Of a stretch of DNA of 36,809 nt, positions 112 through 31,899 are shown piece by piece (the first letter of the stretch is position 1; every line of letters begins with the position of its first letter). The position numbers and the translations under genes are program-made. This DNA is from a virus, in the IMG/VR virus record IMGVR_UViG_3300025151_000122, positions 1 to 36,809 of that record, one strand, 5' to 3'. The notes beneath the pieces were generated by a model. The model did not search any database. It was not told where the DNA came from and was given only the letters and a program-made list of their open reading frames with translations.

Positions 112-140
112 AATATATAAACTATATTCTCAGTAATCAA
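112..140 (-). promoter_or_regulatory. Sigma70-like promoter of rmlA, near-leaderless
   Basis: Read on the minus strand: TTGATT at 140-135, a 17-base spacer, TATATT at 117-112, then six bases (AAATAT) to the ATG at 105. A start about six or seven bases after the -10 box would fall on or next to the A of the ATG, so the mRNA would have essentially no leader. The same geometry recurs before the genes starting at 29883 and 31865. A TTAAATA string at 113-107 also exists but lies one base from the ATG, not at the usual late-promoter distance. Confidence 0.55.
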
Positions 141-163
141 CTAAATTTTCTAGTTGAAGATGA

Positions 164-180
164 ATAAATAATTTTAAAGG
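164..180 (+). promoter_or_regulatory. Late-promoter-like motif and Shine-Dalgarno of the sheath gene
   Basis: ATAAATA at 164-170 matches the core of the T4 late promoter. It lies 16 bases before the ATG at 187, farther than at most other genes here. The extra space holds AAAGG at 176-180, a plausible ribosome binding site six bases before the start. The highly expressed sheath gene therefore seems to have a real leader, unlike many neighbours. Confidence 0.5.
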
Positions 181-186
181 TTTACT

Positions 187-2763
187 ATGAGTAGAAGAAC
201 TATACAATCCCCTGGTATTGAAATTAGAGAGATTGATTTGACGACCCGACCTGCGGCTCCGCTTGGGACAAGCGTGTTTGTTGCTGGGTTTTCAGATCAA
301 GGACCAACTGATGAAATTATAAACGTAGGAACGTTCGCTGAATTTGAAGAAATTTACGGAAAACCTACTAACGCAGCTGAAAGATATTTTTATCATTCAG
401 CGAGACAAGTATTCGATAGCGATGCTAATGTATATGTATCAAGATTACCATATGGTACAACAGCCGGTAGCGGTGGAAAAAACAGAACTGCTTTAGTATA
501 TCCTATCGCTGGTGTCAATACTATACCTCTTACATCTTTTGGTAGCGACGGTAACATAGGTATTGGAGATTCTCCTAATAATGATACTACCGCAATCCAA
601 ACAGCCATGGCATCCGTTACTGCCACAGGTTATGTTGAGGCAATTACAAAGGATGATAATGATAAAATCAAATATTATAGTTTTGAGTTAGGTAACGTTA
701 ATGGAGCTGCTGCTGGTATATTAGCCAGTGATGGTACATCTAATTCATCTTACGATGAACTTAAAGACGAGACTATTATTAAAGCAGAAATGTATCTAAA
801 AGAAGATAATATTGATGATACAACTAGTAGTCTTTCTGCTGCAAATTACTATGTTATTGGTGAACCTACTCAAGTAGAATTATCTGAAAGCGAATACAAC
901 GCTACATTACGTGGTGATGTTACTTGGTCAGATGATATTTCTGCGACAAATTCATTTACAGGGTCAAAAACAGATTTAGGGAAAGCTGGTTTAATTGTAC
1001 TTAATACTGGTAATACTACAACAAATAATGACTATGAAGGTTATTACGTAGGTATTGCTGATAATAGTAATATTAACCCTGCTACTAATTTTGACGCGAT
1101 CGGTAATGTATATTCAGTTACAAATACAGGAGATATAAGTGCTTTCGATACTGTACCTACTTCTCGTTTAGGTTTCGCATTAAGTTCTGAAAGTGGTGCT
1201 AATAACGAAAATACATCAAGTGTAAGTAGAGCATTAGAAACATTTTCTAAGTTTGATATTGATGGTGGTCAGTTTGTTGATACAATTAATATTGGAGTAT
1301 TCAAAATACGTAACACTCCGTTTTCAAATACTGACTTAGAATTAACGTCCTTCTTAGCTGAAGGGTACAGTGGTTCTCTTAATTCTTTTAGAAAAACGCA
1401 AAACGAAAACGGTGGTAATAAAGTATCATTCTTCTTAGAAGATTTAGATAACAATTCTCCTAATATTAAGTTATTAGTTAATCCTAATATTAGTGTTAAG
1501 GCAGGAGATTGGACATCAAATCAAGGAGATGCTCCTACAAAGTTTGTACGTACTACTAGAACAGCTGGTACATTTAATGCAGCAATTACAAAAGGATATG
1601 TAGAAGATACTCCTTTTAAAGATGCACTTATAAAGGTGCTTTTCACTAGAAATACAAACCAAGGCTTATATGCATTAGGTAGTTACAAATCTACTAACAA
1701 TACATCTGCAGCTAAAAACATTGGTAATGTTGGAACTAAATTGGATAGAATATTCAATATTGCTTCTAATGTTGATCAATTTAGAATTGATGTATCAATC
1801 GAAGCTGGTTTAGGTACTATCCAAGCGCTAGCAGAGGGTAGTACATTTGACGATACGACATATGTTGATGTTGATGGTTTTTATGTAACAAATGATAATG
1901 TAACCGATACAACAAATAAAGGACATATTACTAATTACAGAAGTATATTTACTAAGTTCGAAACCTTTGCTAGACAAACACGTAAAGATCATATCTTTAT
2001 CGCTGATCCGTTTAGACCATTATTAGTACAGGGAGATAATGGGAAGGTTCTTGATGATAAAACAAGATACTTTAGTAAGCATGTCTATTGGCCATTACGT
2101 CATCAGTTCGATTTTGCTAATAGTAACTTCGCTACTACTTACGGTAACTGGGCACAGGTTGTTGACGGTACAAGTAATAAACCAGTTTGGATTCCATTCT
2201 CTGGTGTTGCAGCAAAAATATATGCAAATAATGATGCTAATTTCGCACCATGGTTTGCACCAGCTGGTTTCACAAGAGGTGTTGTATCTGGGGTAACTGA
2301 TTTAGCAATTAGTCCAACTCAACGTCAAAGAGATCAATTATATAGAATCGCAGTTAATCCTGTAACTCAGTTCCCTGCTGAAGGAATGGTTGTATTTGGT
2401 CAAAAGACATTACAACGTAAACCAACAGCATTCGATAGAGTTAATGTTCGTAGATTGTTCTTAGACTTAGAGAAGAGAACAAGAGAGACATTAAAATTCT
2501 TTATATTTGAACCTAATACGTTCTTAACAAGAAATAAGGTTGTTAATACTTTAACACCTATTTTCGAAAACGCAAAACAAACAGAAGGTGTTTATGATTA
2601 CCTTATTGTTTGTGATGAGAGGAATAACCCTGCAAGTGTTATTGATAACAACGAACTTAAGGTTGACATTTATTTGAAACCTGTTCGCGCTGCAGAGTTT
2701 ATATTAGTTAATTTCTACGCTGTTAACACAGATGTTAATTTTGAAGAAATTATCGGGCAATAA
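187..2763 (+). CDS. Contractile tail sheath protein (T4 gp18-like)
   Basis: 858 residues. The N-terminus SPGIEIREIDLT is the typical opening of myovirus sheath proteins. The C-terminal third carries FAPWFAPAGFTRG, the ARG-rich stretch around VNVRRLFLDLEKRT, and the ending KPVRAAEFILVNF, all hallmarks of the gp18 sheath core. The middle (about residues 90-450) is rich in N, T, G and D and is probably the surface-exposed insertion that varies among sheath proteins. T4 gp18 is 659 residues, so this is a large version. The sheath polymerises round the tube and contracts on infection. The tube gene follows directly, the standard gp18-gp19 order. The start is supported by AAAGG six bases upstream. 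Confidence 0.96.
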   Translation: MSRRTIQSPGIEIREIDLTTRPAAPLGTSVFVAGFSDQGPTDEIINVGTFAEFEEIYGKPTNAAERYFYHSARQVFDSDANVYVSRLPYGTTAGSGGKNRTALVYPIAGVNTIPLTSFGSDGNIGIGDSPNNDTTAIQTAMASVTATGYVEAITKDDNDKIKYYSFELGNVNGAAAGILASDGTSNSSYDELKDETIIKAEMYLKEDNIDDTTSSLSAANYYVIGEPTQVELSESEYNATLRGDVTWSDDISATNSFTGSKTDLGKAGLIVLNTGNTTTNNDYEGYYVGIADNSNINPATNFDAIGNVYSVTNTGDISAFDTVPTSRLGFALSSESGANNENTSSVSRALETFSKFDIDGGQFVDTINIGVFKIRNTPFSNTDLELTSFLAEGYSGSLNSFRKTQNENGGNKVSFFLEDLDNNSPNIKLLVNPNISVKAGDWTSNQGDAPTKFVRTTRTAGTFNAAITKGYVEDTPFKDALIKVLFTRNTNQGLYALGSYKSTNNTSAAKNIGNVGTKLDRIFNIASNVDQFRIDVSIEAGLGTIQALAEGSTFDDTTYVDVDGFYVTNDNVTDTTNKGHITNYRSIFTKFETFARQTRKDHIFIADPFRPLLVQGDNGKVLDDKTRYFSKHVYWPLRHQFDFANSNFATTYGNWAQVVDGTSNKPVWIPFSGVAAKIYANNDANFAPWFAPAGFTRGVVSGVTDLAISPTQRQRDQLYRIAVNPVTQFPAEGMVVFGQKTLQRKPTAFDRVNVRRLFLDLEKRTRETLKFFIFEPNTFLTRNKVVNTLTPIFENAKQTEGVYDYLIVCDERNNPASVIDNNELKVDIYLKPVRAAEFILVNFYAVNTDVNFEEIIGQ

Positions 2764-2773
2764 TAACTTATAA

Positions 2774-2781
2774 CTTAAATA
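2774..2781 (+). promoter_or_regulatory. Late-promoter-like motif before the tail tube gene
   Basis: CTTAAATA lies between the sheath stop and the tube ATG at 2792, leaving 10 bases to the start. It matches the NTAAATA motif found before many late genes here. It would allow separate, strong transcription of the tube gene, which is needed in high copy number. Confidence 0.5.
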
Positions 2782-2791
2782 ATTAAAGATT

Positions 2792-3382
2792 ATGGCTGAC
2801 ATAAAACAAACTATACAGGACTTCTATAAAGTTGCACAGACTAGAGACTTTGCACGTGACTTCCAATTTCGCGTGCTAGATGTCTCTAATAAAGGGCTAC
2901 CTGTTTTTACTGAAGACGATTTAGTATATGCTACTACAGCTGTTCTTCCTGGTAAACAGATATCTCCTAAAGAGGTGCCTTATAACGGTTTCAACTTTAG
3001 AATACCTGGTACAGTTTCATATAACAACAGTGATGGTTTTACAATTGATTTCTATTGCGATGCTACAACAAATGCTCGTGTTGCAATAGAAAATTGGATT
3101 ACTGAAACGTTTAATGATGAAACAACTACTGGTGATGGGGTGATACATAATAACAGTACTGTTACATTAGCTCAATTGAATACACAATTCGAGCCTCTAA
3201 GAACATACAAGTTATTCGGTGTCTTTCCTGTCCAAGCTGGAGATATTACATACTCCATGGTAGGTACAGGGGAAGTCGCTACTGTTTCAATAACACTCGC
3301 ATATCAGTTTTTCAGAAGAGATAATGAATTAAACGCTGCTGTAAATTCCATCGGTAAATTAGCCGGTGCTGTTTTAGGTTAA
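2792..3382 (+). CDS. Tail tube protein (T4 gp19-like)
   Basis: 196 residues, close to the 163 of T4 gp19. It lies straight after the sheath gene, which is the conserved position. The N-terminus (MADIKQTIQDFYKVAQTRD, then FARDFQFRV), the central beta-rich part with PGKQISPKEVPYNGFNFRIPG, and the ending VSITLAYQFFRR fit the tail-tube fold shared by gp19 and related tube proteins. It forms the inner tube through which DNA passes. No clear Shine-Dalgarno is visible; the start codon is the first ATG after the late motif. Confidence 0.9.
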   Translation: MADIKQTIQDFYKVAQTRDFARDFQFRVLDVSNKGLPVFTEDDLVYATTAVLPGKQISPKEVPYNGFNFRIPGTVSYNNSDGFTIDFYCDATTNARVAIENWITETFNDETTTGDGVIHNNSTVTLAQLNTQFEPLRTYKLFGVFPVQAGDITYSMVGTGEVATVSITLAYQFFRRDNELNAAVNSIGKLAGAVLG

Positions 3383-3387
3383 TAGAC

Positions 3388-3394
3388 CTAAATA
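3388..3394 (+). promoter_or_regulatory. Late-promoter-like motif, 6 bases before ATG
   Basis: CTAAATA followed by ATTTAA and the ATG at 3401. The spacing implies initiation of transcription at or beside the start codon. It lies six bases after the tube gene's stop codon. Confidence 0.6.
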
Positions 3395-3400
3395 ATTTAA

Positions 3401-4093
3401 ATGAGCAGTGAGTATTCTAATATCGACAAAGGAAATCTGAGATTAGAGTTCTACTCTTTACTTCAAAGTTTTGAGACGTATCCTGCGTCTCAGAACTTTT
3501 TTCTTGTTCAAATAGAAAAGATACCTCAAAACCTTTTAACTACGGGAAACCTTAAATCTCTAGGGGTACAACGTACATATGGTAACATAGATAAGACAAA
3601 AGAGGTATTTAAAAAATACTTAGAAGGTTATTTTTATCTCGCTACAGGGGTAGATTTAACAGCTGAGAAAACAAACGTATCAAGTCAAGGTATAACTAAA
3701 AACGGTTTACTACCAGTAGGGCCGTTTATGGATTCTAGAGAGTATCCAGATGCAGATCTAGATATACAATTCCAAGAAACAAATGTAAGTTTTGTAGATC
3801 ATATAATACGTCCATGGATTCAATTATATGCTACATATGGAAACTTTGCTGATAACGATTTAACATCTAATGTTACTATATATTTTCTTTCTAAAGAAAC
3901 AGTTAGCTCTCGTAGTTTCTTCGCTACGTCTACAGCTAAACCTATTGTACGTAAAACATATAAGTATTATGATTGTATTCCTTATAATATACAATCAGCT
4001 AATGTTGCAGAGTATACTGGAGATTCTCAAATAGGTAGTATTGCAACAACATGGCGGTTTTCTAAATATGATGTGATAACCCCATTTAAGTAG
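3401..4093 (+). CDS. Tail-tube-fold protein, possible baseplate tube initiator (T4 gp54-like)
   Basis: 230 residues. Its second half has a tube-like pattern: a strand LDIQFQETN, a helix VDHIIRPWIQLYATYGN, then YDCIPYNIQSANVAEYTGDSQ and a final strand ATTWRFSKYDV. The same order (strand, helix with a conserved W, CIP, S-x-x-ELSY-x-GD, final strand) occurs in T4 gp54, the tail tube initiator, and in tube proteins generally. Its place between the tube gene and the tail chaperones is also compatible with a second tube-type or tail-terminator protein. The stop codon TAG shares its G with the GTG start of the next gene. The gp54 assignment comes from motif order, not from a search. Confidence 0.55.
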   Translation: MSSEYSNIDKGNLRLEFYSLLQSFETYPASQNFFLVQIEKIPQNLLTTGNLKSLGVQRTYGNIDKTKEVFKKYLEGYFYLATGVDLTAEKTNVSSQGITKNGLLPVGPFMDSREYPDADLDIQFQETNVSFVDHIIRPWIQLYATYGNFADNDLTSNVTIYFLSKETVSSRSFFATSTAKPIVRKTYKYYDCIPYNIQSANVAEYTGDSQIGSIATTWRFSKYDVITPFK

Positions 4094-4797
4094 TGTTTAC
4101 ATATAATGATTCTATTTTAATTTCTTCTTTATTTGAAGGTAAGAAGTATACAGAGTGTTTAGATTATGTATACAAAGAACTTAATTGTACCTGTTTAATT
4201 GATTTTCTTATCAAAGTAAAACAAAGTAAGTTTACTAGTGTTGATGCTTCTATCAAATTGTCTGATAAAAATAAAGAAATATTAATTTTTGAAGAAAACT
4301 TCTTAACTAATCTTCCGGATAAAATTAACTATAATAAACAAATATATGATTATACTGTAACATTTACAGCTCCTAAAATAATTGATGGTTGTTTAAATAG
4401 TGTTTATTGTATAGATTCTATAGTATACGAAGGAGAAGAACTGAAACTAAGAACATTAGAAGATTATAATATAATACCGTTTAAAATTATAAACAACTGT
4501 AAGAAAGATTTTACAGAAATTTACGAACGTATACAAGAATCCTTTTTGTATTATATTAATGATGAATATAAAAGTAGATTTCTATGTAATATAGATTCAA
4601 TATTAACAGTATTAAGTTATACGTTAATTGATAGCTACGAAAACTCTCTAAAAGAACAATTATTCCTTATGGAGAAATTTAATTTTTCTTATACGGATTT
4701 TGATAATATGAGTTTAGATAGAGGGAAAAAATTTATTAATTTAGGAATAAAAATATTAAATGAGCGGAATAGTCAGCAAACTCAAACAATTGAATAA
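4093..4797 (+). CDS. Hypothetical tail assembly protein (tape-measure chaperone position)
   Basis: 234 residues, starting at a GTG that overlaps the preceding TAG by one base, so translation is probably coupled. The protein is acidic and rich in I, N, Y and K; its last 90 residues look helical (KKDFTEIYERIQESFLYYI onward). No family was recognised. Genes between the tube and the tape measure in tailed phages usually encode tape-measure chaperones or hub assembly factors (lambda gpG/gpGT, T4 gp26/gp51), so this role is inferred from position. The next gene starts 38 bases before this one ends, in another frame. Confidence 0.6.
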   Translation: MFTYNDSILISSLFEGKKYTECLDYVYKELNCTCLIDFLIKVKQSKFTSVDASIKLSDKNKEILIFEENFLTNLPDKINYNKQIYDYTVTFTAPKIIDGCLNSVYCIDSIVYEGEELKLRTLEDYNIIPFKIINNCKKDFTEIYERIQESFLYYINDEYKSRFLCNIDSILTVLSYTLIDSYENSLKEQLFLMEKFNFSYTDFDNMSLDRGKKFINLGIKILNERNSQQTQTIE

Positions 4798-5407
4798 ATC
4801 TAAAGTCTTTTTACCTTCAATAAAAGAAGAAAAAGACATAGATAGAATCAACATTAACTTTCAAAGCAGGTTACAACAACAATTAAAAGATAACGATAGT
4901 GAGTTTGGAGTTGCTGTAAAATATCTATTACATATCAACGATACCCTTCAAAAACAATTACCTAATATCAGTTTAACATATATAGATAAATTATCTGTAT
5001 TATATACTTGGTCAAGTAAGAGTGAAAAAGTAGATTTTACTAATCTACCAGAACTTGACGGAAATACGTCAATGATTGATTTTGGAGAAGCAAAGGTAGA
5101 ATTTAAGTATAAAAACCCTACCTTAGATTACGAAAATACTTTACTAAAAGAAATAGTCAAAAAACCTACCATAACAGAATATGATTTCATATTCTTTGAT
5201 ACCTTTAGATTTATTAAAAGTATGTCATTTGAAGATGATATAGTTTATAATGTAAAAGATTTAAGTGTCAAAGAATTACATGAGATATATTCAAATCTCA
5301 CATTACCTTCTATTAAGAATATTAATGAATCTATATCGGGTAACTTAAAAGATATAGAAACTATAAGAGCTATTGAGGGAGATTTATCGTTCTATACTGA
5401 TTTGTAA
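4760..5407 (+). CDS. Hypothetical tail assembly protein, second of an overlapping pair
   Basis: 215 residues. It starts at an ATG inside the previous gene and overlaps it by 38 bases. A TAA in this frame directly precedes the ATG (4757-4759), so it is separately initiated rather than made by a long upstream frameshift. The N-terminus is basic (MSGIVSKLKQLNKSKV) and the rest is acidic with helical segments; a central stretch EYDFIFFDTFRFIKSMSFE is hydrophobic. No family was recognised. Its location just before the tape measure suggests a chaperone or baseplate hub assembly function, like T4 gp26/gp51, which is inference. Its stop codon lies within the TAAATAAATA late-promoter-like string that precedes the next gene. 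Confidence 0.6.
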   Translation: MSGIVSKLKQLNKSKVFLPSIKEEKDIDRININFQSRLQQQLKDNDSEFGVAVKYLLHINDTLQKQLPNISLTYIDKLSVLYTWSSKSEKVDFTNLPELDGNTSMIDFGEAKVEFKYKNPTLDYENTLLKEIVKKPTITEYDFIFFDTFRFIKSMSFEDDIVYNVKDLSVKELHEIYSNLTLPSIKNINESISGNLKDIETIRAIEGDLSFYTDL

Positions 5408-5414
5408 ATAAATA
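5408..5414 (+). promoter_or_regulatory. Late-promoter-like motif, 6 bases before ATG
   Basis: ATAAATA at 5408-5414, within TAAATAAATA from 5405, followed by TTTATA and the tape-measure ATG at 5421. The TAA at 5405-5407 is the stop codon of the preceding gene. Confidence 0.6.
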
Positions 5415-5420
5415 TTTATA

Positions 5421-7100
5421 ATGTCAGATATAGCTCTTTTTACCAAAGCGCTCAATTCATTAGCACAGAAGCAAGGCGATACTATTGCAGCTATCGAACT
5501 GCAAGGTGAGTCTGTGTCTACTGCTTTAGCTAAAGTTAATGATACAGTTAAAGATACTAGTAATAGACTTTTTAAACAGGTTAATACTGATCTATTAGAT
5601 ATAAGTCGAAACATAGTAGAAATAAAAAAATTCTTTCTTAAGAAGCAATTAGATCAAAAAAAGACTGAAGGTAATACAAGCACAGCAGATAAAGATATCA
5701 ATGTTACTAGAGTTAATTCTGGCAAATTAGTAAAACAAACAGTACAGGTAAACAATACTCTCAAGAAATTAGTACAGTTATCTGAAAATGAATTTAAAGC
5801 AACAGAAAAAGTACGTACTGAAGCGAAAGATAAAGAACAAAAAGAAAAAGAAGATAGAGAGTTACGTAAACAACAATTAGAAGAATCTAAGTCTTTAAAA
5901 GGTAAGTTTAAAACATTAGGGGCACAAATTTTAGGTAAAGAAGACCCGTATAAAGATGTAAGAGAAAAACAATTACAAGGCGCGACTAAAGATGCGCAAG
6001 GCGGTAACGTACGTAGTTTAAGCGGAGCAACCAAAGACCCTGGTAGTGGTAAAAAAAGTGGAGGTATTATAGCAGCGATAAAAGGCTCTGAAATGGGGCA
6101 AAGAACAAAAAAATCTGCTGAGACTGTCAAAGACACTTTTCCGATTTTAAAAGATTTAAAATCGCTATTATTAATAGGTATTGCTGCGTTTAGCGGTTTA
6201 TTAAAATTCATACCTAAACTATTAAAAGGTATAGTAAAGTTTGGAAGGTTGATAGGAAAGCTAGGTAGAGTTTTAGGTCGGTTTGCTGCAAAGATGTTTC
6301 GTGTCGCTGGTCGATTTTTAAGAGCTGTAGGTCGATTTGCTAAAAAAGCATTCGCATTTATAGGTCGGTTTTTAAAGGCTGTAGGTCGTATGGCGAGAAC
6401 TATAGGTAAGTCTATAGCAAAAGTAATAACTAATATACTTAGTAAGATACCTGGTATATCAAAGTTTTTTAAACCTAAAGCAAAAGCAAAAGCACCTACT
6501 CCAGATCCTAAAGCAAAGCCAAAACCAAAACCATCTGGCGCTACAAAGGCGACCCAGGAAATAGCAAAGAAAAAAATACAACAAGAAACAGCTGAGGCAA
6601 CTGCAAAAGCAGCTGCGTCATCTACAACAAAAGCTGTTGCTAAATCTGGCGGTAAGACACTAGTTAAATCTGGTCTTAAAAAAATTCCTTTAGTTGGAGC
6701 TTTATTTGGTATTGGTTTTGGGTTACAGAGAGCTTTTTCTGGTGATTTTGCCGGTGCTGCGTTAGAAGTAGCAAGTGGTGTTACTGGAGCTATACCTGGT
6801 GTTGGTACAGCTGCTTCAGCTGCAATAGACGTTGGTTTAGCAGCACGAGATATACATAAAGCGACAAGTGGTCTTAAGAGCGATATGGATTCAAAGGCAC
6901 AGGAAATGTATAATGAAAAACCTATGCGGAAAGTAAATCCTGATGGGTCAGCTTACGACTCGATACCACTACAAGGATCTGGGGTAAACAGACCAAATTG
7001 GTCGCTGCCTCCTGCGCCTCCTGTAATGATGAACAATCAAACTAATACATATAATATAATGCCAAACAATATTAAACCCGTAATGGAAGGTGCTTATTAA
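5421..7100 (+). CDS. Tail tape measure protein (T4 gp29-like in role)
   Basis: 559 residues; T4 gp29 has 590. Residues about 1-190 are charged and helical, with a heptad-like run around residues 120-160 (E/K-rich, probable coiled coil). A hydrophobic segment LLLIGIAAFSGLLKFI lies near residue 250. It is followed by a cationic stretch (about 272-340) in which G-R-hydrophobic units recur every 7-8 residues (LGRVLGRF, AGRFLRAVGRF, IGRFLKAVGRM). Next comes a K/P/A-rich linker (KAKAKAPTPDPKAKPKPKPS), and then a glycine- and alanine-rich hydrophobic region (KKIPLVGALFGIGFGLQRAF, residues about 420-480). This architecture is typical of short tape measures that set tail length and interact with the inner membrane. 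The position before the tube-cap gene supports the call. The stop TAA shares its last A with the next gene's ATG. Confidence 0.75.
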   Translation: MSDIALFTKALNSLAQKQGDTIAAIELQGESVSTALAKVNDTVKDTSNRLFKQVNTDLLDISRNIVEIKKFFLKKQLDQKKTEGNTSTADKDINVTRVNSGKLVKQTVQVNNTLKKLVQLSENEFKATEKVRTEAKDKEQKEKEDRELRKQQLEESKSLKGKFKTLGAQILGKEDPYKDVREKQLQGATKDAQGGNVRSLSGATKDPGSGKKSGGIIAAIKGSEMGQRTKKSAETVKDTFPILKDLKSLLLIGIAAFSGLLKFIPKLLKGIVKFGRLIGKLGRVLGRFAAKMFRVAGRFLRAVGRFAKKAFAFIGRFLKAVGRMARTIGKSIAKVITNILSKIPGISKFFKPKAKAKAPTPDPKAKPKPKPSGATKATQEIAKKKIQQETAEATAKAAASSTTKAVAKSGGKTLVKSGLKKIPLVGALFGIGFGLQRAFSGDFAGAALEVASGVTGAIPGVGTAASAAIDVGLAARDIHKATSGLKSDMDSKAQEMYNEKPMRKVNPDGSAYDSIPLQGSGVNRPNWSLPPAPPVMMNNQTNTYNIMPNNIKPVMEGAY

Positions 7101-11726: not shown

Positions 11727-11754
11727 TTGAATTACTTATGTTTTAAACTATATT
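11727..11754 (+). promoter_or_regulatory. Sigma70-like promoter of the dUTPase gene
   Basis: TTGAAT at 11727-11732, 16-base spacer, TATATT at 11749-11754, then 8 bases to the ATG at 11763. The transcript would have almost no leader. It would drive dUTPase and clamp loader early, independently of the surrounding late tail genes. Confidence 0.5.
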
Positions 11755-11762: not shown

Positions 11763-12200
11763 ATGAGCGAAGTTAAAATGACATTTGTTAAGACCCATAA
11801 GAGTGCTAAGTTACCAGAACGCGCCCATGCAAGTGATTCTGGTTATGATTTGACCAGTGTAGAAGAAATGACTATCCCTGCAAAAGGATCTGCGGTCGTC
11901 CCGGTTGGTTTAACGTTAGGTTATTTAGAACCTGGTTGGTGGTTTAGGATTGAACCAAGAAGCGGTCTAGGTTTTAAGAAAAGCATACAACCTCATCTAG
12001 GTATTATTGATAACGGTTATCGTGGAGACCTTGGAGTAAAACTGTATAACTTTAGTGGTTCAGATTGGGTATTACCTACAGGTAGTAAAGTCGCTCAATT
12101 AGTATTATATCCTCATATTACTGCAGACATTGAATGGGCTGATGAAGTTACGGGAGCTGATCGTGGAGATGCAGGGTTTGGTTCTACTGACAAAGCATGA
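11763..12200 (+). CDS. dut: dUTP diphosphatase (dUTPase)
   Basis: 145 residues, the usual length of trimeric dUTPases. All five motifs are present: I, SDSGYDL (24-30); II, PRSGL (65-69); III, GIIDNGYRGDLGV (80-92) with the catalytic aspartate; IV, GSKVAQLVL (107-115); V, RGDAGFGST (134-142). It hydrolyses dUTP to dUMP and pyrophosphate, keeping uracil out of phage DNA and feeding dTMP synthesis. An in-frame ATG exists at 11679, but the extra 28 residues are unlike any dUTPase and would cross the promoter and the divergent gene, so the start at 11763 is preferred. The end overlaps the clamp loader start (ATGA), so the two are co-translated. Confidence 0.96.
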   Translation: MSEVKMTFVKTHKSAKLPERAHASDSGYDLTSVEEMTIPAKGSAVVPVGLTLGYLEPGWWFRIEPRSGLGFKKSIQPHLGIIDNGYRGDLGVKLYNFSGSDWVLPTGSKVAQLVLYPHITADIEWADEVTGADRGDAGFGSTDKA

Positions 12201-13642: not shown

Positions 13643-14125
13643 ATGGCAATAAAGCTAGACATACTTGATAATGTAAAAAACAAAGATGCGTATCGTAAGT
13701 ATACATACGCAGATTTACATTTAGACTTACAACTTAGTAGCAGAGTACCTGATAAACCTACTGGTGCTAGTAAAAATGCACAAGATTTAAAGTTGAGTTA
13801 TGATGTTTTAGCTATATACAATTCTATTAAAAATATTTTCAATACTAAGAAAGGACAAAAGATTTTAACACCTAATTTTGGGTTAGATTTAGAACAATAT
13901 TTATTTGATAATATAACCAAAGATAATGCAAAACAAATAGGTAAAACAATTTTAGAAGAGTTACCATTTTATGAACCGAGAATTACGGTAGAAAACGTAA
14001 GCGTTATTGCGCGACCAGATGCAAATGAGTATAAAATAAGTATATCTATCATTATACCTTCATTAAATAATAGAAAGGATAGTTTGTCTGGTACATTAAC
14101 TGAAACAACATTTACATACAACTAA
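13643..14125 (+). CDS. Baseplate wedge protein (T4 gp25-like)
   Basis: 160 residues (T4 gp25, 132). The gp25/lysozyme-like wedge core is clear: IYNSIKNIFNTKKGQKILTPNFGLDLEQYLFDNIT (about residues 60-95), then LPFYEPRITVENVSV with the conserved EPR motif. The final part has alternating strands (YKISISIIIP). gp25 links wedges to the sheath and hub and is among the most conserved contractile-system proteins. The extra 30 residues are at the N-terminus. The next gene, gp6-like, follows after 2 bases, the order seen in T4-like phages. Confidence 0.92.
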   Translation: MAIKLDILDNVKNKDAYRKYTYADLHLDLQLSSRVPDKPTGASKNAQDLKLSYDVLAIYNSIKNIFNTKKGQKILTPNFGLDLEQYLFDNITKDNAKQIGKTILEELPFYEPRITVENVSVIARPDANEYKISISIIIPSLNNRKDSLSGTLTETTFTYN

Positions 14126-20731: not shown

Positions 20732-20737
20732 ATTTAT

Positions 20738-23497: not shown

Positions 23498-23500
23498 TTA

Positions 23501-24613: not shown

Positions 24614-24621
24614 ACAAATAA

Positions 24622-24628: not shown

Positions 24629-24633
24629 ATTAT

Positions 24634-25569: not shown

Positions 25570-28500
25570 ATGAGCGTTCTATCTATAAACAACGGTACAA
25601 TAGTTCCTATCGAGTATAGTCATATGCACGATAGCGGAATACTATTCCGTAAATATAGAGAAGTATTTGACTTTGGATTATCAATTAACAACTATTATAT
25701 TAACAAAAATCCAAAAGATAAAAAAACTAATTATAACACTCAATACACGTTAACTAATTTACAACCTTTATCTACATTAGTAGAGTTAGATATACCTTAC
25801 ACGAAGTATGCTACGAGCAAATTTACAACTACTATTAAACTTGATACATCATTTTTAAAAACCAATTTTACTGACTATGCTGATGGTAGATCTGAATTAG
25901 AAGTATCGAGCATGTTTAGTAATTTAAGTAGTGGTTTCTTTTATACTTTTACTATTACAAGCTTTCCAACAGGTATAGCAAATATAGATGAAGAAAGAAT
26001 AATTATATCCTCAGAAGAAATTGTAGGGAACCAATCAACTACTTGGTATTTAAGCGCTCCAAAAAATCAAAATACATTTGCTAAATGGACGTCATCTGCT
26101 CCTACAATTGCTGATCAAACTTTTAGATTCACACTTGAAGATAATACATTAATGATTTTTAGTGCCCCTAATAATCTAGGTATTGCTTCAGGTAATATAG
26201 GAGCGGGTAATATCGGTGTAGGTATTGGATCTACTACAGAAAATATAGCTACAAACGTTGCAGTAATTTCTTCTAATGAGTTATATTGGCGAGCCCCAGG
26301 TATATGGCAATCTACAGCTAGTGAATTGTCTACTGGTCAATTTACAGTTAATAGAAAAAATTTAACTAAAGATAATAATAAAATACCTAACAGTTATGTA
26401 AAGTACACATCTTCATATAATGCTGATATTGTTGATCTCAATACATCTACAGTAACAGAAAATATTAGTAATAATTATTTTGTATATAGCAACAATTATA
26501 ACTTTTATCATAATAAAGATAGTGAGCAATTAAACACAGTGTCTGTTCATGCAGATCTTTTTGCTTTAAAGAACCAAGCTACCTTACATGAATATTACGC
26601 AGAAAATAATCATTTCAACTCTGAACCAAATTATTTGAATAGAGTGTATGAAAAAATTCATGGTGGAACTAATCAACAACGAGGCTATGAGAAAGTAGGG
26701 TTATCATATAATATTGGTACCTATGATATGAATTTTAAACCTAGTAAGCTAACATATTTTACAACTCCAAATTCATTAGCACCATATACTGTTTTAAATA
26801 TTAAAGACGCGAGGTTAGAAAAACTAGGTGCCATCGCTGGAGATAGCCCGTTACTGTCTGATAAAGTTTTTAAAAGAAGAGAGAATATAAAGAACAATAA
26901 TTTTACTGATGGTGTCGACCCTACTTACTTATGTAGTTGGTTATCTGGAAATAAAGACGGTGAAACTAAATGGGTTGATAGATATTATAACCCTAGGATA
27001 CAAAGCTTTCCGGATGCGCTCTCAGGATCAGATCAAACATATTACAATGTAGTGACGAGTGCTAGCGCTCAAACAACAGAGGTATTTGATGTTTCTTCAA
27101 GTCTAGCTTTTGAGCCGAACAATGATTATGCAATCTATCATATTGGGTCAAAAGATTACGAACAACTGTTTAGATCTTATTCGAAATATGACAAAGCAAC
27201 AGATCTAGAATTTTTAACTGATAAAAACGTCCCTACTACAACTAATAAAGTTTTACAAGATAAAGAGCTAGTTTTTGATGGAGAGAAATACGGAAAAGTA
27301 ACTCCTAATATATCTGGAGACTTTAGCGTAAATATGTGGCTCCATACTCCGGATAATTCTCAACCATTTGGTTATCTCATTGCCGGTAATTATTTTGAAG
27401 AAGGTTTTGGTATATTCAATACGGATCTAGTAACACCAAATATTATACTACCTATAAATAGAAACACATTACTATTTTTAAATAATGATTTAGAAGTATA
27501 TGATAAAGTTACTCTCACAGATAATGGCCATATTATTAATATCAAAGGTTTAGCGAGAAAAGATAATTTTTCTGAGTTTTATGTCTTAGGAGAAAATAAT
27601 ATTATCTACGTTTTTAATAGTAATAATAATTTAATCAGTAAGATAGAAAATCTAAAAGACTCCACAGCAACTATAGATGATTGGGATGTAGGAGATGATA
27701 GGTTAAATGTTTTGTTTAATCCTATAAATTATAAGCCTAATAGTAAGACTGATAAACCTTACTTCACATATGATATTAATACCAACAAATCATCAACGAG
27801 AGTGTCTGTTGCATCAGCTGATACTAAAGGCAAAAAAGGAAAAATAATTCGCAAAGACTGTAAGACATATATTTTTGAAGTAGATTCAGAAAATGGTTTC
27901 GGTAATGAAATAGCGTTTGATAGTGCTGGGAAAGCATATACAGTAAGACAAAGCTATCCTGATAATTTAACTAAACCTCAAAATTATGTACAAAAAGGTT
28001 CCCCTGCTATACAAGAAGCGGAGAACGATAGAAAAAATATAATAAAATCTGGTTTAGGTAAAAGAAGTACTATTCATGGTGTGTTGGTTGACGATGAAGA
28101 TAACATTATTGTATTGCATGATAATAATATTATTTCTATTTTAGATAATGATCGTAAATTAAAAACAACTAGAGAGTTCTGTAATTTAAAAAATCTTATA
28201 GCGCAACAATCTTATATAGATTTGATATATGATTTTGAAGATGGAGTCTATAAGAAATATATTTTGTTTGTACAAGAATTTAATGATGGTTTTAGATTAA
28301 CAAAAATTAATGAAAAGCTAAAAATTATTAGTACGAAAAGATTTTACAGTACAGCAACTGATCCGTTTAATCTATGTGACTTAAAGCTAACAAAAACAAT
28401 CACATCATATTCTTATCTTCGTAAAACTGGAGCAAATAAAAATAGATTCAAAGCAGTAATAAAAGCTAAACCTAAATTTTCCTCAACTGGTATTATTCCT

Positions 28501-29076
28501 AAAGACAGACAAGAGATAGATTTCGATATCTCTACTCTCAATACTGGATACAATCATTTCTTCTTAAACGTATCTATGCGCAAAGGTTTCATGGAACTGT
28601 ATGTGAATAGTAAACTATATAGTAAGATAAGATTCCAAGCAGGAAGATACGCATTAGATAATGTTCTTGGTACTGGGTGTTATATAGGTGCTGTGAGTAC
28701 TCCATTTTATTTAACATTTGCGAATAGAATATTACAACCTAAAAAATATTTTCTCAAAGATATAAAAATTAAAGGTTTAAAACTATATGATAAAACTATG
28801 AGCTATTTTGAAATGTTAGCTCATTACAATTATCATTTAGGAGAAAAAGACTTAATATGGTCATACCCATTAGGTCAAAGAACTTATATTGATACAATAG
28901 ATAAATTGGTTAAGTTTACTCTACCAGAGCGTATAAACAATAACTATCGTCTAACGTTGAACAATACTGGCATTAAAGACGAGAAATTAAAAGATAAGAT
29001 AAAAGAGAAAATAAACGACGAAGTATTAAAGCTTACTCCATACTATGATAAGCTTGATGATATTGTTATAAGCTAA
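25570..29076 (+). CDS. Large putative adhesin with LamG-like and propeller-like regions
   Basis: 1168 residues, the largest gene in the window, starting directly after the previous stop. Residues 1-550 are beta-rich and unrecognised. From about 565, ELVFDGEKYGKVTPNISGDF and VNMWLHTP look like the first strands of a LamG/concanavalin-like domain. The matching last strands appear only at about 945-1070 (HFFLNVSMRKGFMELYVNSK; YIGAVSTPFYLTF; LKDIKIKGLKLYDKTM). The intervening 630-930 contains repeated propeller-like strands (GHIINIKGLARKDNFSEFYV; NNIIYVF; GNEIAFDSAGKAYTV; HGVLVDDEDNIIVLHDNNI). This suggests a beta-propeller inserted in a lectin-like domain. The C-terminal 80 residues are charged and partly helical. 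Last gene of the structural operon, so probably a receptor-binding protein; inferred. Confidence 0.65.
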   Translation: MSVLSINNGTIVPIEYSHMHDSGILFRKYREVFDFGLSINNYYINKNPKDKKTNYNTQYTLTNLQPLSTLVELDIPYTKYATSKFTTTIKLDTSFLKTNFTDYADGRSELEVSSMFSNLSSGFFYTFTITSFPTGIANIDEERIIISSEEIVGNQSTTWYLSAPKNQNTFAKWTSSAPTIADQTFRFTLEDNTLMIFSAPNNLGIASGNIGAGNIGVGIGSTTENIATNVAVISSNELYWRAPGIWQSTASELSTGQFTVNRKNLTKDNNKIPNSYVKYTSSYNADIVDLNTSTVTENISNNYFVYSNNYNFYHNKDSEQLNTVSVHADLFALKNQATLHEYYAENNHFNSEPNYLNRVYEKIHGGTNQQRGYEKVGLSYNIGTYDMNFKPSKLTYFTTPNSLAPYTVLNIKDARLEKLGAIAGDSPLLSDKVFKRRENIKNNNFTDGVDPTYLCSWLSGNKDGETKWVDRYYNPRIQSFPDALSGSDQTYYNVVTSASAQTTEVFDVSSSLAFEPNNDYAIYHIGSKDYEQLFRSYSKYDKATDLEFLTDKNVPTTTNKVLQDKELVFDGEKYGKVTPNISGDFSVNMWLHTPDNSQPFGYLIAGNYFEEGFGIFNTDLVTPNIILPINRNTLLFLNNDLEVYDKVTLTDNGHIINIKGLARKDNFSEFYVLGENNIIYVFNSNNNLISKIENLKDSTATIDDWDVGDDRLNVLFNPINYKPNSKTDKPYFTYDINTNKSSTRVSVASADTKGKKGKIIRKDCKTYIFEVDSENGFGNEIAFDSAGKAYTVRQSYPDNLTKPQNYVQKGSPAIQEAENDRKNIIKSGLGKRSTIHGVLVDDEDNIIVLHDNNIISILDNDRKLKTTREFCNLKNLIAQQSYIDLIYDFEDGVYKKYILFVQEFNDGFRLTKINEKLKIISTKRFYSTATDPFNLCDLKLTKTITSYSYLRKTGANKNRFKAVIKAKPKFSSTGIIPKDRQEIDFDISTLNTGYNHFFLNVSMRKGFMELYVNSKLYSKIRFQAGRYALDNVLGTGCYIGAVSTPFYLTFANRILQPKKYFLKDIKIKGLKLYDKTMSYFEMLAHYNYHLGEKDLIWSYPLGQRTYIDTIDKLVKFTLPERINNNYRLTLNNTGIKDEKLKDKIKEKINDEVLKLTPYYDKLDDIVIS

Positions 29077-29414
29077 CGCCAATACTTATGAGGATAATCT
29101 GGCGTGTTCTCTTTACGTATTGCTTCTGTCCAATCTACATCTAAACCTTTATGATATAAGTTATGGTTTAATGTGTTTGTATCTGGACTAGGTTCCCAGG
29201 TCCTAGCTAAAGCAAAGAGCTGATTTTTCTCATATTCCTTTGCATGCACAACTTGACAAAATTTATTAAGGATAGATTTTTTAGGCGGAGGGTTTATACC
29301 TCTTTCAATCTTTCGCCAAACTTCATATTCTATTCTGAGTATTTTTGCTAGCTTAGTAATGTTTTTAAACTTCCGAGAACGAAGCTCAACGACGTATAAA
29401 TGAAACTTGTTCAA
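29073..29414 (-). CDS. XRE/Cro-type helix-turn-helix protein
   Basis: 113 residues. Residues about 17-60 fit a Cro/C1-type HTH: ITKLAKILRI (helix 2), YEVWRKIERG (recognition helix), then PPKKSILNKFCQVV. It would bind DNA and may regulate phage or host genes. The only plausible start is TTG, directly after the TAA of the upstream gene (stop 29417-29415, start 29414-29412); there is no ATG near the N-terminus. Its tail (TWEPSPDTNTLNHNLYHKGL) is polar with no recognised domain. It converges with the adhesin gene, overlapping by 4 bases. It is likely co-transcribed with the 70-residue gene upstream. Confidence 0.7.
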   Translation of the reverse strand: MNKFHLYVVELRSRKFKNITKLAKILRIEYEVWRKIERGINPPPKKSILNKFCQVVHAKEYEKNQLFALARTWEPSPDTNTLNHNLYHKGLDVDWTEAIRKENTPDYPHKYWR

Positions 29415-29627
29415 TTACCGGCCTGATAAAAACAAAGCTTTAATATTTTCTAACTCAGCAACGACTTGTTGCGCCAGATAATGTTTAGCATTATCAGAGC
29501 CTTCCATTATTAGAGATCGGCCTTGATATGTATGCTCATTTACAATCTGTCGATACTTGTTAATCATACCGTCTAATGCGGCATATGTTTCTCTTGGTTT
29601 TGTTCTTTCGAATTCTGATGGGTTCAT
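29415..29627 (-). CDS. Small hypothetical protein, late promoter
   Basis: 70 residues from the ATG at 29627: starts MNPSEFERTKPRETYAALDG and ends LENIKALFLSGR. It looks wholly helical and amphipathic (MINKYRQIVNEHTYQGRSL; AKHYLAQQVVAELENIKALF). The frame is open to 29690, but the longer form would overlap the previous gene, while the 29627 start sits five bases after a CTAAATA motif. No family was recognised. It is followed without a gap by the HTH gene, so the pair is probably one unit. Confidence 0.65.
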   Translation of the reverse strand: MNPSEFERTKPRETYAALDGMINKYRQIVNEHTYQGRSLIMEGSDNAKHYLAQQVVAELENIKALFLSGR

Positions 29628-29631
29628 ATAA

Positions 29632-29883
29632 TTATTTAGCTTTAGGGGATACAACATGCACGCCTGATCCACGACCAGTAAATCTACCATAAGGATTTAG
29701 TCGCCGATAATCAGAGAAGTTCTCCGCTGAAACAACCTGACAGTCTCCAGCAGTCTTATGACCATACACCATAATACCTTTCGGTCGAGAAATATCAGGT
29801 CGTCGAAAAGCACAGGGTTTACAAATCTTAAGATTGAGATTCGCTCGCTCTTGCTCAATAGGATTACCACAAACACATTTCAT
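29632..29883 (-). CDS. Small zinc-ribbon protein
   Basis: 83 residues. The N-terminal 27 residues hold two cysteine pairs, C-V-C at 3-5 and CKPC at 21-24, which could bind one zinc ion. The rest is basic with the stretch KGIMVYGHKTAGDCQVVS and a glycine/arginine-rich end (YGRFTGRGSGVHVVSPKAK). The pattern suggests a nucleic-acid or protein-binding accessory protein of unknown function. Its own sigma70-type promoter lies directly before the ATG, and its stop codon TAA is part of the late-promoter motif of the next gene. Confidence 0.65.
   Translation of the reverse strand: MKCVCGNPIEQERANLNLKICKPCAFRRPDISRPKGIMVYGHKTAGDCQVVSAENFSDYRRLNPYGRFTGRGSGVHVVSPKAK
29633..29639 (-). promoter_or_regulatory. 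Late-promoter-like motif overlapping a stop codon
   Basis: Minus strand CTAAATA, ATTAT, then the ATG at 29627. The TA of the motif plus the next A is the TAA stop of the zinc-ribbon gene. Confidence 0.65.
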
Positions 29884-29889
29884 ACAAAG

Positions 29890-29918
29890 ATAATATGCAA
29901 AACAAGAAATTAAATCAA
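29890..29918 (-). promoter_or_regulatory. Sigma70-like promoter of the zinc-ribbon gene
   Basis: Minus strand TTGATT at 29918-29913, 17-base spacer, TATTAT at 29895-29890, six bases (CTTTGT), then the ATG at 29883. The -35 box overlaps the last codons of the metallopeptidase gene. Same geometry as the rmlA promoter. Confidence 0.6.
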
Positions 29919-30397
29919 GCAGATTTTTTAGATAGCTTTTCTAGTAACCTGTAGATGTCTTTGAATTCGTTTTTATATTTGCGTTCAAATTCTCGCGCAT
30001 CTGCTTCCCATGGATTTTTATAATACGTATCCGTACAGTCATCACAATCTTGTACGGAGTAATTTAATTTAGATTCTGAAACTCCTAATATGTTATCTTG
30101 TATCCAATGTCTTAATTCATGAAGGTAATGACAAACGAATGTATCAAAAACCTTTTCCTTACTTTTACCGTTTTGATCTAACTGACTAGTCAAATAAATC
30201 TCATCAAAACCGAAAAAATATCCACTACAATCTGTCGGTTCTTTTATTATTTTAATTATCGGATACCTATCTTTATTATAACGGCGGATTTGATTCAATA
30301 ATATATTCGTAGTCTTTTCCACTAAACGAATATCCACATGTTTAGATTTTAACCATTTCCGCACATTCCATGATGATTTTAATGTGACAGATATCAT
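29915..30397 (-). CDS. Putative zinc metallopeptidase (HExxH)
   Basis: 160 residues. HELRH at 93-97 is an HExxH zinc motif in a helix (DTFVCHYLHELRHWIQDN). A glutamate in NPWEADAREFERKY (E131) lies 34 residues on and is a fair candidate for the third ligand, as in gluzincin-type minimal peptidases. C118 and C121 (DCDDC) lie in the loop between them. No signal peptide is present, so it would act in the cytoplasm or in the virion. Possible roles are processing of phage or host proteins; the target is unknown. A late-type motif precedes the start, arguing for a late function such as virion maturation. Catalytic activity is inferred from the motif only. Confidence 0.65.
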   Translation of the reverse strand: MISVTLKSSWNVRKWLKSKHVDIRLVEKTTNILLNQIRRYNKDRYPIIKIIKEPTDCSGYFFGFDEIYLTSQLDQNGKSKEKVFDTFVCHYLHELRHWIQDNILGVSESKLNYSVQDCDDCTDTYYKNPWEADAREFERKYKNEFKDIYRLLEKLSKKSA

Positions 30398-30402
30398 ATA
30401 AG

Positions 30403-30409
30403 TATTTAG
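30403..30409 (-). promoter_or_regulatory. Late-promoter-like motif, 5 bases before ATG
   Basis: Minus strand CTAAATA, CTTAT, then the metallopeptidase ATG at 30397. It stands in a 155-base intergenic region (30398-30552) that otherwise holds only the terminator at 30499-30526. Confidence 0.6.
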
Positions 30410-30498
30410 GCAGCGACTCTTACGCTATTTTAATTATTTGCTGCTTATCCGAACGGCGCTCTCTACGTTCGTTAATACTTATAATATATCACAGAGAA

Positions 30499-30526
30499 TA
30501 AAAAAAAGCCTCAGTCTCCTGAGGCT
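30499..30526 (-). terminator. Rho-independent terminator after the DUF932 gene
   Basis: Minus strand AGCCTCAG (30526-30519), loop GAGA, CTGAGGCT (30514-30507), followed by a run of T (complement of the A run 30499-30506). The perfect 8-bp GC-rich stem plus T-run begins 27 bases after the DUF932 stop codon. Confidence 0.92.
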
Positions 30527-30552
30527 CTGAATCTATGTTGACGAGTGTCTAA

Positions 30553-31560
30553 TTAGTTAGCATTGAAAACCACCGGTTCTAGCTTGCTCGTCCGGAGAAT
30601 GTTTAAAGCTCTACGCTTCATCCGATCAAGCTGCCCACCAGGAACATTCATGCTACCGATTCGATTTTGAACATATTCGTGATTCCCACGTTCAATAGCA
30701 TTAGCTAATCGAGTGGTATTTTGATGGTGATCCACATACTCAGTCACAGCGTTAAACGCATCCCAACGAGTGCGACCTAAATTACCAGCTCCATTCTTAA
30801 ACAAAGCAGTAATATCACTATGAATGTTCATAGTACGGTCATCCTCTTCATTCTTCACTGGATACAGTTTATTCAAGAATGTGGTTAGCTCTTCTTTGCT
30901 GATCACTTGACTATCTAGATCGCTAAAGCTCTTGTACATACTTGAGAGCTTATCCATATTTTTATGGAACAATCCACGAACCATATCGATCTTCTTTTCG
31001 TAATTCGAGAAGTGCTGGATACGCAAATCTCTAGTCGACTCTTGTAGCAACGAAACGAACTGATTGTTACAAAAACCGCGTTTCGAGTTCGGGTAGATAA
31101 CGTTAGAGACAATACCATCATGACCAATCAACATCGTGATCATTGAGTTGATTTCATCTCCATCTCTCCCTGGCATATTAAACGTATATTTTTTAGGAAG
31201 AGTTGCTTGAACCCAAATACGACTACCACCGCGCATCACTCCTGCAGCTGAATACTCTCCACCATACATTTGTCGAACTTCATCAAACGCGTCGATCAAT
31301 TCAGAGTTCTGAATCGGGGTATACTTCTTACCAACGATACTATAAATATCTCCAGAACGTGTGTTCTTAATACCATAGAATCGCCCGAACTTATCATCTC
31401 CAGTCAAATCACTAAGATTGACTGCCTCTACTTCAAAGTCAAGTCCGAGCTTATCATACAAGTCTGACTTACTTCTGATCTCACTGTTTACTCCTTCAAC
31501 TGGAGATTGAGCGAATTCGTTAATATTTTCTAACGCAACGTTTTGGTTATTAATTATCAT
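30553..31560 (-). CDS. DUF932 family protein
   Basis: 335 residues. It matches the DUF932 phage/plasmid family: an N-terminal part with YSIVGKKYTPIQNSELIDAFDEV (about residues 73-95), then GGRIW-like GGSRIWVQATLPKKYTF, and a central GHDGIVSNVIYPNSKRGFCNNQF. The family occurs widely in phages and plasmids; its biochemical role is not established. The gene is a single transcription unit: a near-perfect sigma70 promoter lies 10 bases before the ATG and a strong terminator directly follows. That suggests high early expression. Codon use looks less AT-extreme than in the tail genes. No alternative ATG exists near the N-terminus. Confidence 0.85.
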   Translation of the reverse strand: MIINNQNVALENINEFAQSPVEGVNSEIRSKSDLYDKLGLDFEVEAVNLSDLTGDDKFGRFYGIKNTRSGDIYSIVGKKYTPIQNSELIDAFDEVRQMYGGEYSAAGVMRGGSRIWVQATLPKKYTFNMPGRDGDEINSMITMLIGHDGIVSNVIYPNSKRGFCNNQFVSLLQESTRDLRIQHFSNYEKKIDMVRGLFHKNMDKLSSMYKSFSDLDSQVISKEELTTFLNKLYPVKNEEDDRTMNIHSDITALFKNGAGNLGRTRWDAFNAVTEYVDHHQNTTRLANAIERGNHEYVQNRIGSMNVPGGQLDRMKRRALNILRTSKLEPVVFNAN

Positions 31561-31570
31561 AACAAGAACT

Positions 31571-31599
31571 ATTATAGACTGTCTTTTATTTTATGTCAA
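31571..31599 (-). promoter_or_regulatory. Consensus sigma70 promoter of the DUF932 gene
   Basis: Minus strand TTGACA at 31599-31594, exactly 17 bases, TATAAT at 31576-31571: both hexamers equal the consensus. Only 10 bases separate the -10 box from the ATG at 31560, so the leader would be about three or four bases. The -35 box abuts the stop codon of the 36-residue gene. Confidence 0.88.
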
Positions 31600-31710
31600 C
31601 TATTTCTTTCTTCTGGAAACGCGAGTCTTAGTAACGGTGACTGTAGTACGAGTCTTGATACCTCGACTAGTCGTTTCCTTAACTTTCTGACGTGTAACTT
31701 TTTTTGCCAT
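31600..31710 (-). CDS. Tiny basic protein (36 residues)
   Basis: The frame runs ATG at 31710 to TAG at 31602-31600. The product begins MAKKVTRQKVKETTSRG and continues IKTRTTVTVTKTRVSRRKK; about a third of the residues are lysine or arginine and many are threonine or valine. AGAAAGGA lies six to eight bases before the ATG, a good ribosome binding site. It sits 32 bases after another tiny basic gene, so the two form an operon. It could bind nucleic acid or an acidic host protein, which is conjecture. The size alone makes the call tentative, but the start signals and reading frame fill a gap otherwise without genes. Confidence 0.6.
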   Translation of the reverse strand: MAKKVTRQKVKETTSRGIKTRTTVTVTKTRVSRRKK

Positions 31711-31742
31711 ATTTTTCCTTTCTAATGTATGAACCTTTTCCC

Positions 31743-31865
31743 TTACGAGGCTTGTGCACTCTTGTTCCTGTGTTGAATAACACTCTTGCTCTTACCCTTT
31801 TCATATCGTCTCACTTTGATTGAAAACTTCCGCTTATTGACCTGAATACGCATCTTAACGCTCAT
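31743..31865 (-). CDS. Tiny basic protein (40 residues)
   Basis: ATG at 31865 to TAA at 31745-31743. The product starts MSVKMRIQVNKRKFSIKVRR and continues YEKGKSKSVIQHRNKSAQAS. It is strongly basic, with an N-terminal alternating pattern (KMRIQVNKRKFSIKV) that could form a beta hairpin. A sigma70-type promoter ends six bases before the ATG and no Shine-Dalgarno is present, so the gene would be read from a leaderless mRNA. Probably an early gene, co-transcribed with the 36-residue basic gene. Function unknown. Confidence 0.55.
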   Translation of the reverse strand: MSVKMRIQVNKRKFSIKVRRYEKGKSKSVIQHRNKSAQAS

Positions 31866-31871
31866 AAGGTA

Positions 31872-31899
31872 ATTATATTTATGCCAGAGAGGTCATCAA
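31872..31899 (-). promoter_or_regulatory. Sigma70-like promoter of the basic-protein pair
   Basis: Minus strand TTGATG at 31899-31894, 16-base spacer, TATAAT at 31877-31872, six bases (TACCTT), then the ATG at 31865. An ATAAATA string (31881-31875) overlaps the -10 box, 10 bases or so from the ATG, so late use is also possible. Confidence 0.6.

What the first reader, a model, noticed from the sequence alone, without database searches (positions are those of the whole stretch)
112..31899. Early sigma70 promoters also placed for leaderless transcripts
rmlA (TTGATT-17-TATATT-6-ATG), the zinc-ribbon gene (TTGATT-17-TATTAT-6-ATG) and the 40-residue basic gene (TTGATG-16-TATAAT-6-ATG) share the same distance from -10 box to ATG. 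dUTPase has 8 bases, and the DUF932 gene and the 48-residue gene have 10. Such spacing puts +1 on or within a few bases of the ATG. Together with the late motif, two unrelated promoter classes converge on leaderless or near-leaderless mRNA, suggesting that the host ribosome accepts such messages well.
Basis: partly seen in the sequence, partly recalled or inferred. Interest (0 to 1): 0.7.

Follow-up and report, generated by a model that had tools for sequence, protein, structure and literature searches.

The report
Phage early promoters make leaderless messages
A little-known group of marine T4-like phages places its early gene switches so close to the first codon that the messages probably start at, or within about four letters of, the start signal, without the usual ribosome landing site, and their likely hosts, marine Verrucomicrobia, also seem to do without that site.

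Summary
All six geometries in the finding are in the sequence. Within the window, 6 of 39 starts have a sigma70 pair ending 5-10 nt before the ATG, none have one at 11-28 nt, and 0 of 300 shuffles match this. Relatives make it firm. In about 30 relatives the rmlA promoter keeps its place. dUTPase keeps TTGAA-16-TATA(T/C)T-6-ATG although its N-terminus differs by up to about 35 residues. Where the first gene of the small basic operon is missing, the promoter sits 6-7 nt before the next gene. Across eleven genomes of this T4-like lineage, sigma70 pairs cluster 6-9 nt before ATG (49 against 17 at 10-31 nt; 18 of 28 gene families). T4, HTVC008M, Melnitz and P-HM1 show no such cluster. Shine-Dalgarno (SD) motifs are near background (5.5% against 56-71% in T4, HTVC008M and Melnitz). 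A DUF1552 gene in four relatives has all 26 of its retrieved GTDB homologues in Verrucomicrobiota, mostly marine Opitutia. Opitutia genomes also lack SD signal and show sigma70 pairs 6-9 nt before ATG. Best reading: early messages start at, or 0-4 nt before, the AUG, suited to an SD-poor host. No transcript ends were measured; host identity and early timing are inferred.

The parts
112..140 (-). rmlA sigma70-type promoter: -35 TTGATT 135-140, spacer 17, -10 TATATT 112-117, 6 nt to the ATG at 105
   Evidence: Read directly. Conserved in about 30 relatives as TTGATT...TATAATATAAATAT-ATG.
1..105 (-). rmlA 5' part (window ends inside the gene); start anchored by [13 protein letters not shown]
   Evidence: Pfam NTP_transferase residues 2-34 aligned from profile position 1.
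11727..11754 (+). dUTPase promoter: TTGAAT-16-TATATT, 8 nt to the ATG (6 nt in relatives)
   Evidence: Distance of 6 held in relatives with different N-terminal extensions.
11763..12200 (+). dUTPase
   Evidence: Pfam dUTPase E=7.7e-25; TIGR00576.
29890..29918 (-). zinc-ribbon gene promoter: TTGATT-17-TATTAT, 6 nt to the ATG at 29883
   Evidence: Relative L145 has TTGATT-16-TATTAT-7-ATG.
29632..29883 (-). 83-residue Cys-rich (zinc-ribbon-like) protein
   Evidence: No Pfam hit. One orthologue, 70% identical, in L145.
31571..31599 (-). DUF932 gene promoter: TTGACA-17-TATAAT, 10 nt to the ATG at 31560
   Evidence: Conserved at 9 nt in seven relatives with AGACAGTCTATAAT invariant.
30553..31560 (-). 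DUF932 protein
   Evidence: Pfam PF06067 E=8.6e-32.
31872..31899 (-). promoter of the small basic operon: TTGATG-16-TATAAT, 6 nt to the ATG at 31865
   Evidence: Relatives have TTGACT-17-TATAAT-10-ATG, or 6-7 nt before the next gene where the first gene is missing.
31743..31865 (-). 40-residue basic protein, first gene of the operon
31679..31804 (-). 41-residue ArfA-like protein, second gene of the operon
   Evidence: Pfam PF03889 ArfA E=1.3e-6, 28.2 bits over the cut-off of 25.5; conserved in the family.
36101..36129 (-). weak promoter of the 48-residue gene: TTGCCG-17-GATAAT, 10 nt to the ATG at 36090
   Evidence: Relatives have TTGACG-16-TATAAT-6-ATG.
13643..14125 (+). example of the second promoter class: gp25-like late gene with TTAAATAATTATA-ATG
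   Evidence: TAAATA peaks 5-6 nt before ATG family-wide.

Best explanation
The window is part of a T4-like phage lineage whose sigma70-type (host RNA polymerase, presumably early) promoters are placed so that transcription starts on, or up to about 4 nt before, the A of the first gene's AUG. The first cistron is then read by ribosomes engaging a 5'-terminal or near-terminal AUG, without a Shine-Dalgarno sequence. Later cistrons of the same transcript are reached by translational coupling or a residual SD. The phage's late (gp55-type, TAAATA) promoters follow the same design. The host, probably a marine Opitutia (Verrucomicrobiota), uses little or no SD and appears to carry leaderless genes itself. 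Shown: promoter sequences, distances, conservation, SD depletion, contrast with other T4-like phages, and the same trends in Opitutia DNA. Inferred: the transcription start, early timing, host identity and the initiation route.
For: Geometry confirmed and non-random in the window. rmlA promoter conserved in about 30 relatives with rmlA's start fixed by homology. dUTPase distance fixed at 6 in relatives while N-terminal extensions vary from 0 to about 35 residues, so the adjacent in-frame ATG is the start. Promoter 6-7 nt before the ArfA-like gene when the 40-residue gene is absent. Across eleven genomes, 49 pairs at 6-9 nt against 17 at 10-31. By gene family, 18 of 28 have medians of 6-9, p=2e-10, and the peak persists where the intergenic gap is 60-100 nt (18 against 2). 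TATAAT at 6-10 against 16-35 nt is 38:10 in the family and 1:18 in the control phages, p=2e-8. Many TATAAT hits 25-39 nt away are reverse-strand late motifs of the divergent neighbour. The base before the ATG is mostly a pyrimidine, as expected for a start at A. SD at background level (5.5% against 3.8%). In D. radiodurans a -10 motif 6-7 bp before the ORF was shown by reporter tests to drive leaderless genes (PMC12340547), and TANNNT about 12 bp upstream marks leaderless genes in a survey (PMC3160421). Host: 26 of 26 DUF1552 homologues in Verrucomicrobiota; Opitutia SD 6.7% against background 5.7%, and 14 pairs at 6-9 against 13 at 10-31, p=1e-5.
Against: No 5' end has been mapped. RNA polymerase can start 4-9 nt after the -10 box, so leaders of a few nt are possible, and DUF932 and the 48-residue gene should have 3-4 nt. 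SD depletion at promoter-proximal genes is partly forced, because the -10 box occupies the SD position. A few family promoters sit 11-18 nt before ATG, for example a recurrent TATAAT-16-ATG class. Some operon-internal genes keep SD-like motifs (13%). Gene starts in the relatives and hosts were called by my own script, and related genomes are not independent (the family-level count corrects for this). The host link rests on one gene family in four relatives plus 53-56% identity of the window's HldD to the best genomes of the Opitutia class. No phage of this lineage was found in 384 genomes of that class, and 16S ends could not be read.
Confidence: 0.83

Rival explanations
1. The promoters are real but give short SD-less leaders (about 3-10 nt); translation uses unstructured AT-rich 5' ends and ribosomal protein S1 or 30S standby, not true leaderless initiation.
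For: DUF932 and the 48-residue gene have 10 nt and DUF932 relatives 9 nt. Bacteroidota and similar SD-scarce groups use AT-rich, SD-less starts (PMC3160421; PMC10783764). Some family promoters lie 11-18 nt away.
Against: The peak is at 6-7 nt (41 listed cases: 31 at 6, 10 at 7), where the standard start falls on A of ATG, and dUTPase keeps exactly 6 in relatives.
Confidence: 0.2
2. Packing artefact: in compact genomes promoters end up against the gene without selection for leaderless messages.
For: Phage genomes are compact, and some gaps are only 40-48 nt.
Against: Peak persists for gaps of 60-100 nt (18 against 2). Equally compact T4, HTVC008M, Melnitz and P-HM1 put TATAAT mainly 16-35 nt away and, P-HM1 apart, mostly use SD.
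Confidence: 0.05
3. Chance matches in AT-rich DNA.
For: AT-rich (32.5% GC) sequence gives many TATA-like hexamers.
Against: 0 of 300 shuffles reach the count; conservation and family-wide peak.
Confidence: 0.01

Closest known systems
Leaderless genes with an ORF-adjacent -10 box in Deinococcus-Thermus (PMC12340547) and TA-led genes in bacteria (PMC3160421)
   Same: -10 box ends about 6-7 nt before the start codon; no SD between; predicted 5' UTR of 0 to a few nt.
   Different: Those are cellular genes and often lack a -35; here the promoters are phage-borne, carry a clear TTGA -35 with 15-18 nt spacing, and serve a T4-like phage.
T4 early promoters
   Same: Recognised by host sigma70 RNA polymerase; TATAAT-type -10.
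   Different: In T4, TATAAT lies mostly 16 nt or more upstream of the ATG and 62% of genes after a gap carry SD; here 6-10 nt and SD at background.
Pelagibacter phage HTVC008M (marine T4-like)
   Same: About ten of its genes have TAAATA (mostly ATAAATA) ending 3-8 nt before ATG, so its late promoters look leaderless-placed too.
   Different: Its sigma70-like pairs are scattered and 56% of its genes after a gap carry SD.
Leaderless phage transcripts named from memory: lambda cI from PRM; Thermus phage phiYS40
   Same: Messages start at the AUG.
   Different: Recalled, not tested here. Lambda has single cases, and phiYS40 is a different phage of a Thermus host, a group known for leaderless genes.

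Membership tests
Leaderless (TA-led) bacterial genes | -10 box about 6-7 nt before the start codon, clustered at that distance | tested here: met
Leaderless (TA-led) bacterial genes | No Shine-Dalgarno sequence between promoter and start | tested here: met
   0/86, partly by construction; whole family at background, 5.5% against 3.8%.
Leaderless (TA-led) bacterial genes | Transcription starts at or within a few nt of the AUG | not testable with these tools
   Needs 5'-end mapping.
sigma70 promoter | TTGACA-like -35, 15-18 nt spacer, TATAAT-like -10 | tested here: met
   conserved in relatives. The 48-residue gene's own pair is weak.
T4-type early promoter class | Active immediately after infection, before phage protein synthesis | not testable with these tools
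   Inferred from sigma70 type only.
T4-like phages | gp18, terminase, gp20, gp23 and gp55 homologues | tested here: met
   Sheath homologues in T4-like phages; terminase, gp20, gp23 and gp55 in relatives.
Phage of marine Opitutia | Host genes shared, or a phage contig inside a host genome | tested here: inconclusive
   DUF1552 homologues all Verrucomicrobiota; HldD up to 56% identical; no phage copy in 384 genomes.

The most novel reading that the evidence does not exclude
A whole T4-like phage lineage has moved both its sigma70 and its gp55-type promoters to leaderless positions because its hosts, marine Opitutia, initiate translation largely without Shine-Dalgarno and often on leaderless messages, which would make Opitutia a new bacterial group with widespread leaderless translation.
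Probability: 0.45. Interest if true: 0.75.

Novelty: new variant of a known kind. Interest (0 to 1): 0.62.

Why it matters
Leaderless messages in Gram-negative bacteria and their phages are usually treated as single cases. Here an entire phage lineage appears to have rebuilt two unrelated promoter classes around them, and the likely host group shows the same signs. If true, promoter-to-AUG distance in a phage becomes a readout of its host's way of starting translation, useful for linking uncultured phages to hosts, and gene callers that rely on SD will misplace starts in both.

Tried and rejected
(1) DUF932 as a viral-contig query gave no confirmed relatives; whole-genome searches of relatives found them instead. 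(2) The tube-protein alignment found no relative in genome contigs or in 384 Opitutia-class genomes. (3) 16S 3' ends of candidate hosts could not be recovered; the control also rang in only 9 of 14 genomes, so the anti-SD was not checked. (4) A possible second class of promoters 25-39 nt upstream turned out mostly to be the reverse strand of the divergent gene's late motif. (5) HldD and terminase searches in plasmid and phage collections gave no close relative. (6) A Bacteroidota-type promoter (TAnnTTTG) fits only the zinc-ribbon gene by eye; the others are plain sigma70, so that host idea was dropped.

Full report
What it is. The window (36.8 kb, 32.5% GC) is a fragment of a T4-like phage record. 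It holds gp18-like sheath, tube, gp25, baseplate genes, a clamp loader and dUTPase, an early-looking block on the minus strand at 29-37 kb, and sugar genes (rmlA, hldD). IMG/VR holds many relatives (sheath 38-63% identical over most of its length; tube 64-90%), including contigs of 75-201 kb. Ten relatives were read. They encode gp55, gp23, gp20 and terminase, about 27-45% identical to Melnitz proteins, and are not close to any cultured phage.

Observation. The six promoter-to-ATG geometries are exactly as stated; the 48-residue gene lies outside the stated range and its own pair is weak. Over 39 window starts, 6 have a scored sigma70 pair at 5-10 nt and none at 11-28 nt; shuffles give a mean of 1.55 and never 6.

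Conservation. The rmlA promoter is kept in about 30 relatives, and rmlA's start is fixed by its family motif. dUTPase is the cleanest case: relatives carry N-terminal extensions of different length and sequence, yet all have TTGAA-16-TATA(T/C)T-6-ATG, so the ATG next to the promoter is the start and the distance is held. In the small basic operon the promoter sits 6-10 nt before whichever gene comes first: the 40-residue gene in some genomes, the ArfA-like gene in G001 and G007. DUF932 keeps AGACAGTCTATAAT and 9-10 nt.

Family-wide statistics. In 1193 called genes of eleven genomes, sigma70 pairs upstream of ATG starts peak at 6-9 nt (49 against 17 at 10-31 nt). By gene family, 18 of 28 have medians of 6-9 nt (p=2e-10). 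The peak persists for gaps of 60-100 nt. The base before the ATG is mostly a pyrimidine, as for a start at A. T4, HTVC008M, Melnitz and P-HM1, run through the same pipeline (only about 50-100 kb of each), show no peak there and place TATAAT mainly 16-35 nt away. The late motif TAAATA peaks 5-6 nt before ATG in this family, so both promoter classes share the design.

SD use. SD-like tetramers at 4-11 nt occur in 5.5% of family genes after a gap (background 3.8%), against 62% in T4, 71% in Melnitz, 56% in HTVC008M and 18% in P-HM1. For promoter-proximal genes the absence is partly forced, because the -10 box occupies that place; the family-wide level is not. Operon-internal genes keep a little SD (13%), for example AGAAAGGA before the 36- and 73-residue genes.

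Host. A DUF1552 protein in G003, G004, G006 and G012 has 26 confirmed homologues in GTDB, all Verrucomicrobiota, mostly Opitutia from seawater. The window's HldD reaches 56% identity in genomes of the Opitutia class, against at most 43% in the plasmid set; other phyla were not searched for it. About 931 kb of Opitutia DNA (three single-cell genomes, two MAGs) shows SD at background (6.7% against 5.7%; E. coli 67%) and TTG[AC]-TAnnnT pairs enriched 6-9 nt before ATG (14 against 13 at 10-31, p=1e-5). PMC10783764 lists Akkermansia and Verrucomicrobia bacterium IMCC26134 as SD-scarce.

Mechanism. Host sigma70 RNA polymerase starts about 7 nt after the -10 hexamer, which for a 6-nt gap is the A of ATG (established knowledge). 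Ribosomes then load on a terminal AUG. PMC12340547 tested this geometry by reporter in D. radiodurans, and PMC3160421 uses it to call leaderless genes. Genes with 9-10 nt would have 3-4 nt leaders.

Verdict. Observation confirmed, interpretation supported. Leaderless messages are a known kind; a T4-like lineage with both promoter classes so placed, paired with an SD-poor host group, is a new variant as far as the literature searched here shows.

Noticed in passing
window 31679-31804 (-): A 41-residue protein matches Pfam ArfA (alternative ribosome-rescue factor A, E=1.3e-6) with the KGKGSYIRK motif; it is conserved in seven relatives and is the first gene of its operon in two.
   Followed up: partly
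KC465899 (L213, L300): In the cultured SAR11 phage HTVC008M about ten genes have TAAATA (mostly ATAAATA) ending 3-8 nt before ATG, so its late promoters look leaderless-placed although most of its genes use SD.
   Followed up: partly
window 106-117 and rmlA upstream in relatives: The 14 nt before rmlA (TATAATATAAATAT) are nearly invariant in relatives, more than a -10 box needs; a T4-late-like TATAAATA overlaps but would start inside the gene. Unexplained.
   Followed up: no
L170:3444-4688, late gene in G003, G004, G006 and G012: A DUF1552 protein typical of marine Opitutia sits under a late promoter (CTAAATAATTCT-ATG in three of the four); possible host-derived gene.
   Followed up: partly
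G002 and G006, four genes: A recurrent promoter TTGAC-16-TATAAT-16-ATG (two genes in each genome) ends in GTTGTTAGAG or GTTGTCAGAG before ATG; in-frame GTG or TTG codons lie a few nt after the -10, so leaderless GTG or TTG starts are possible.
   Followed up: no
window 33669-33899 (-): A short ferredoxin-like protein (IDCDLC...NCPVEA) whose counterpart is next to rmlA in G003.
   Followed up: no
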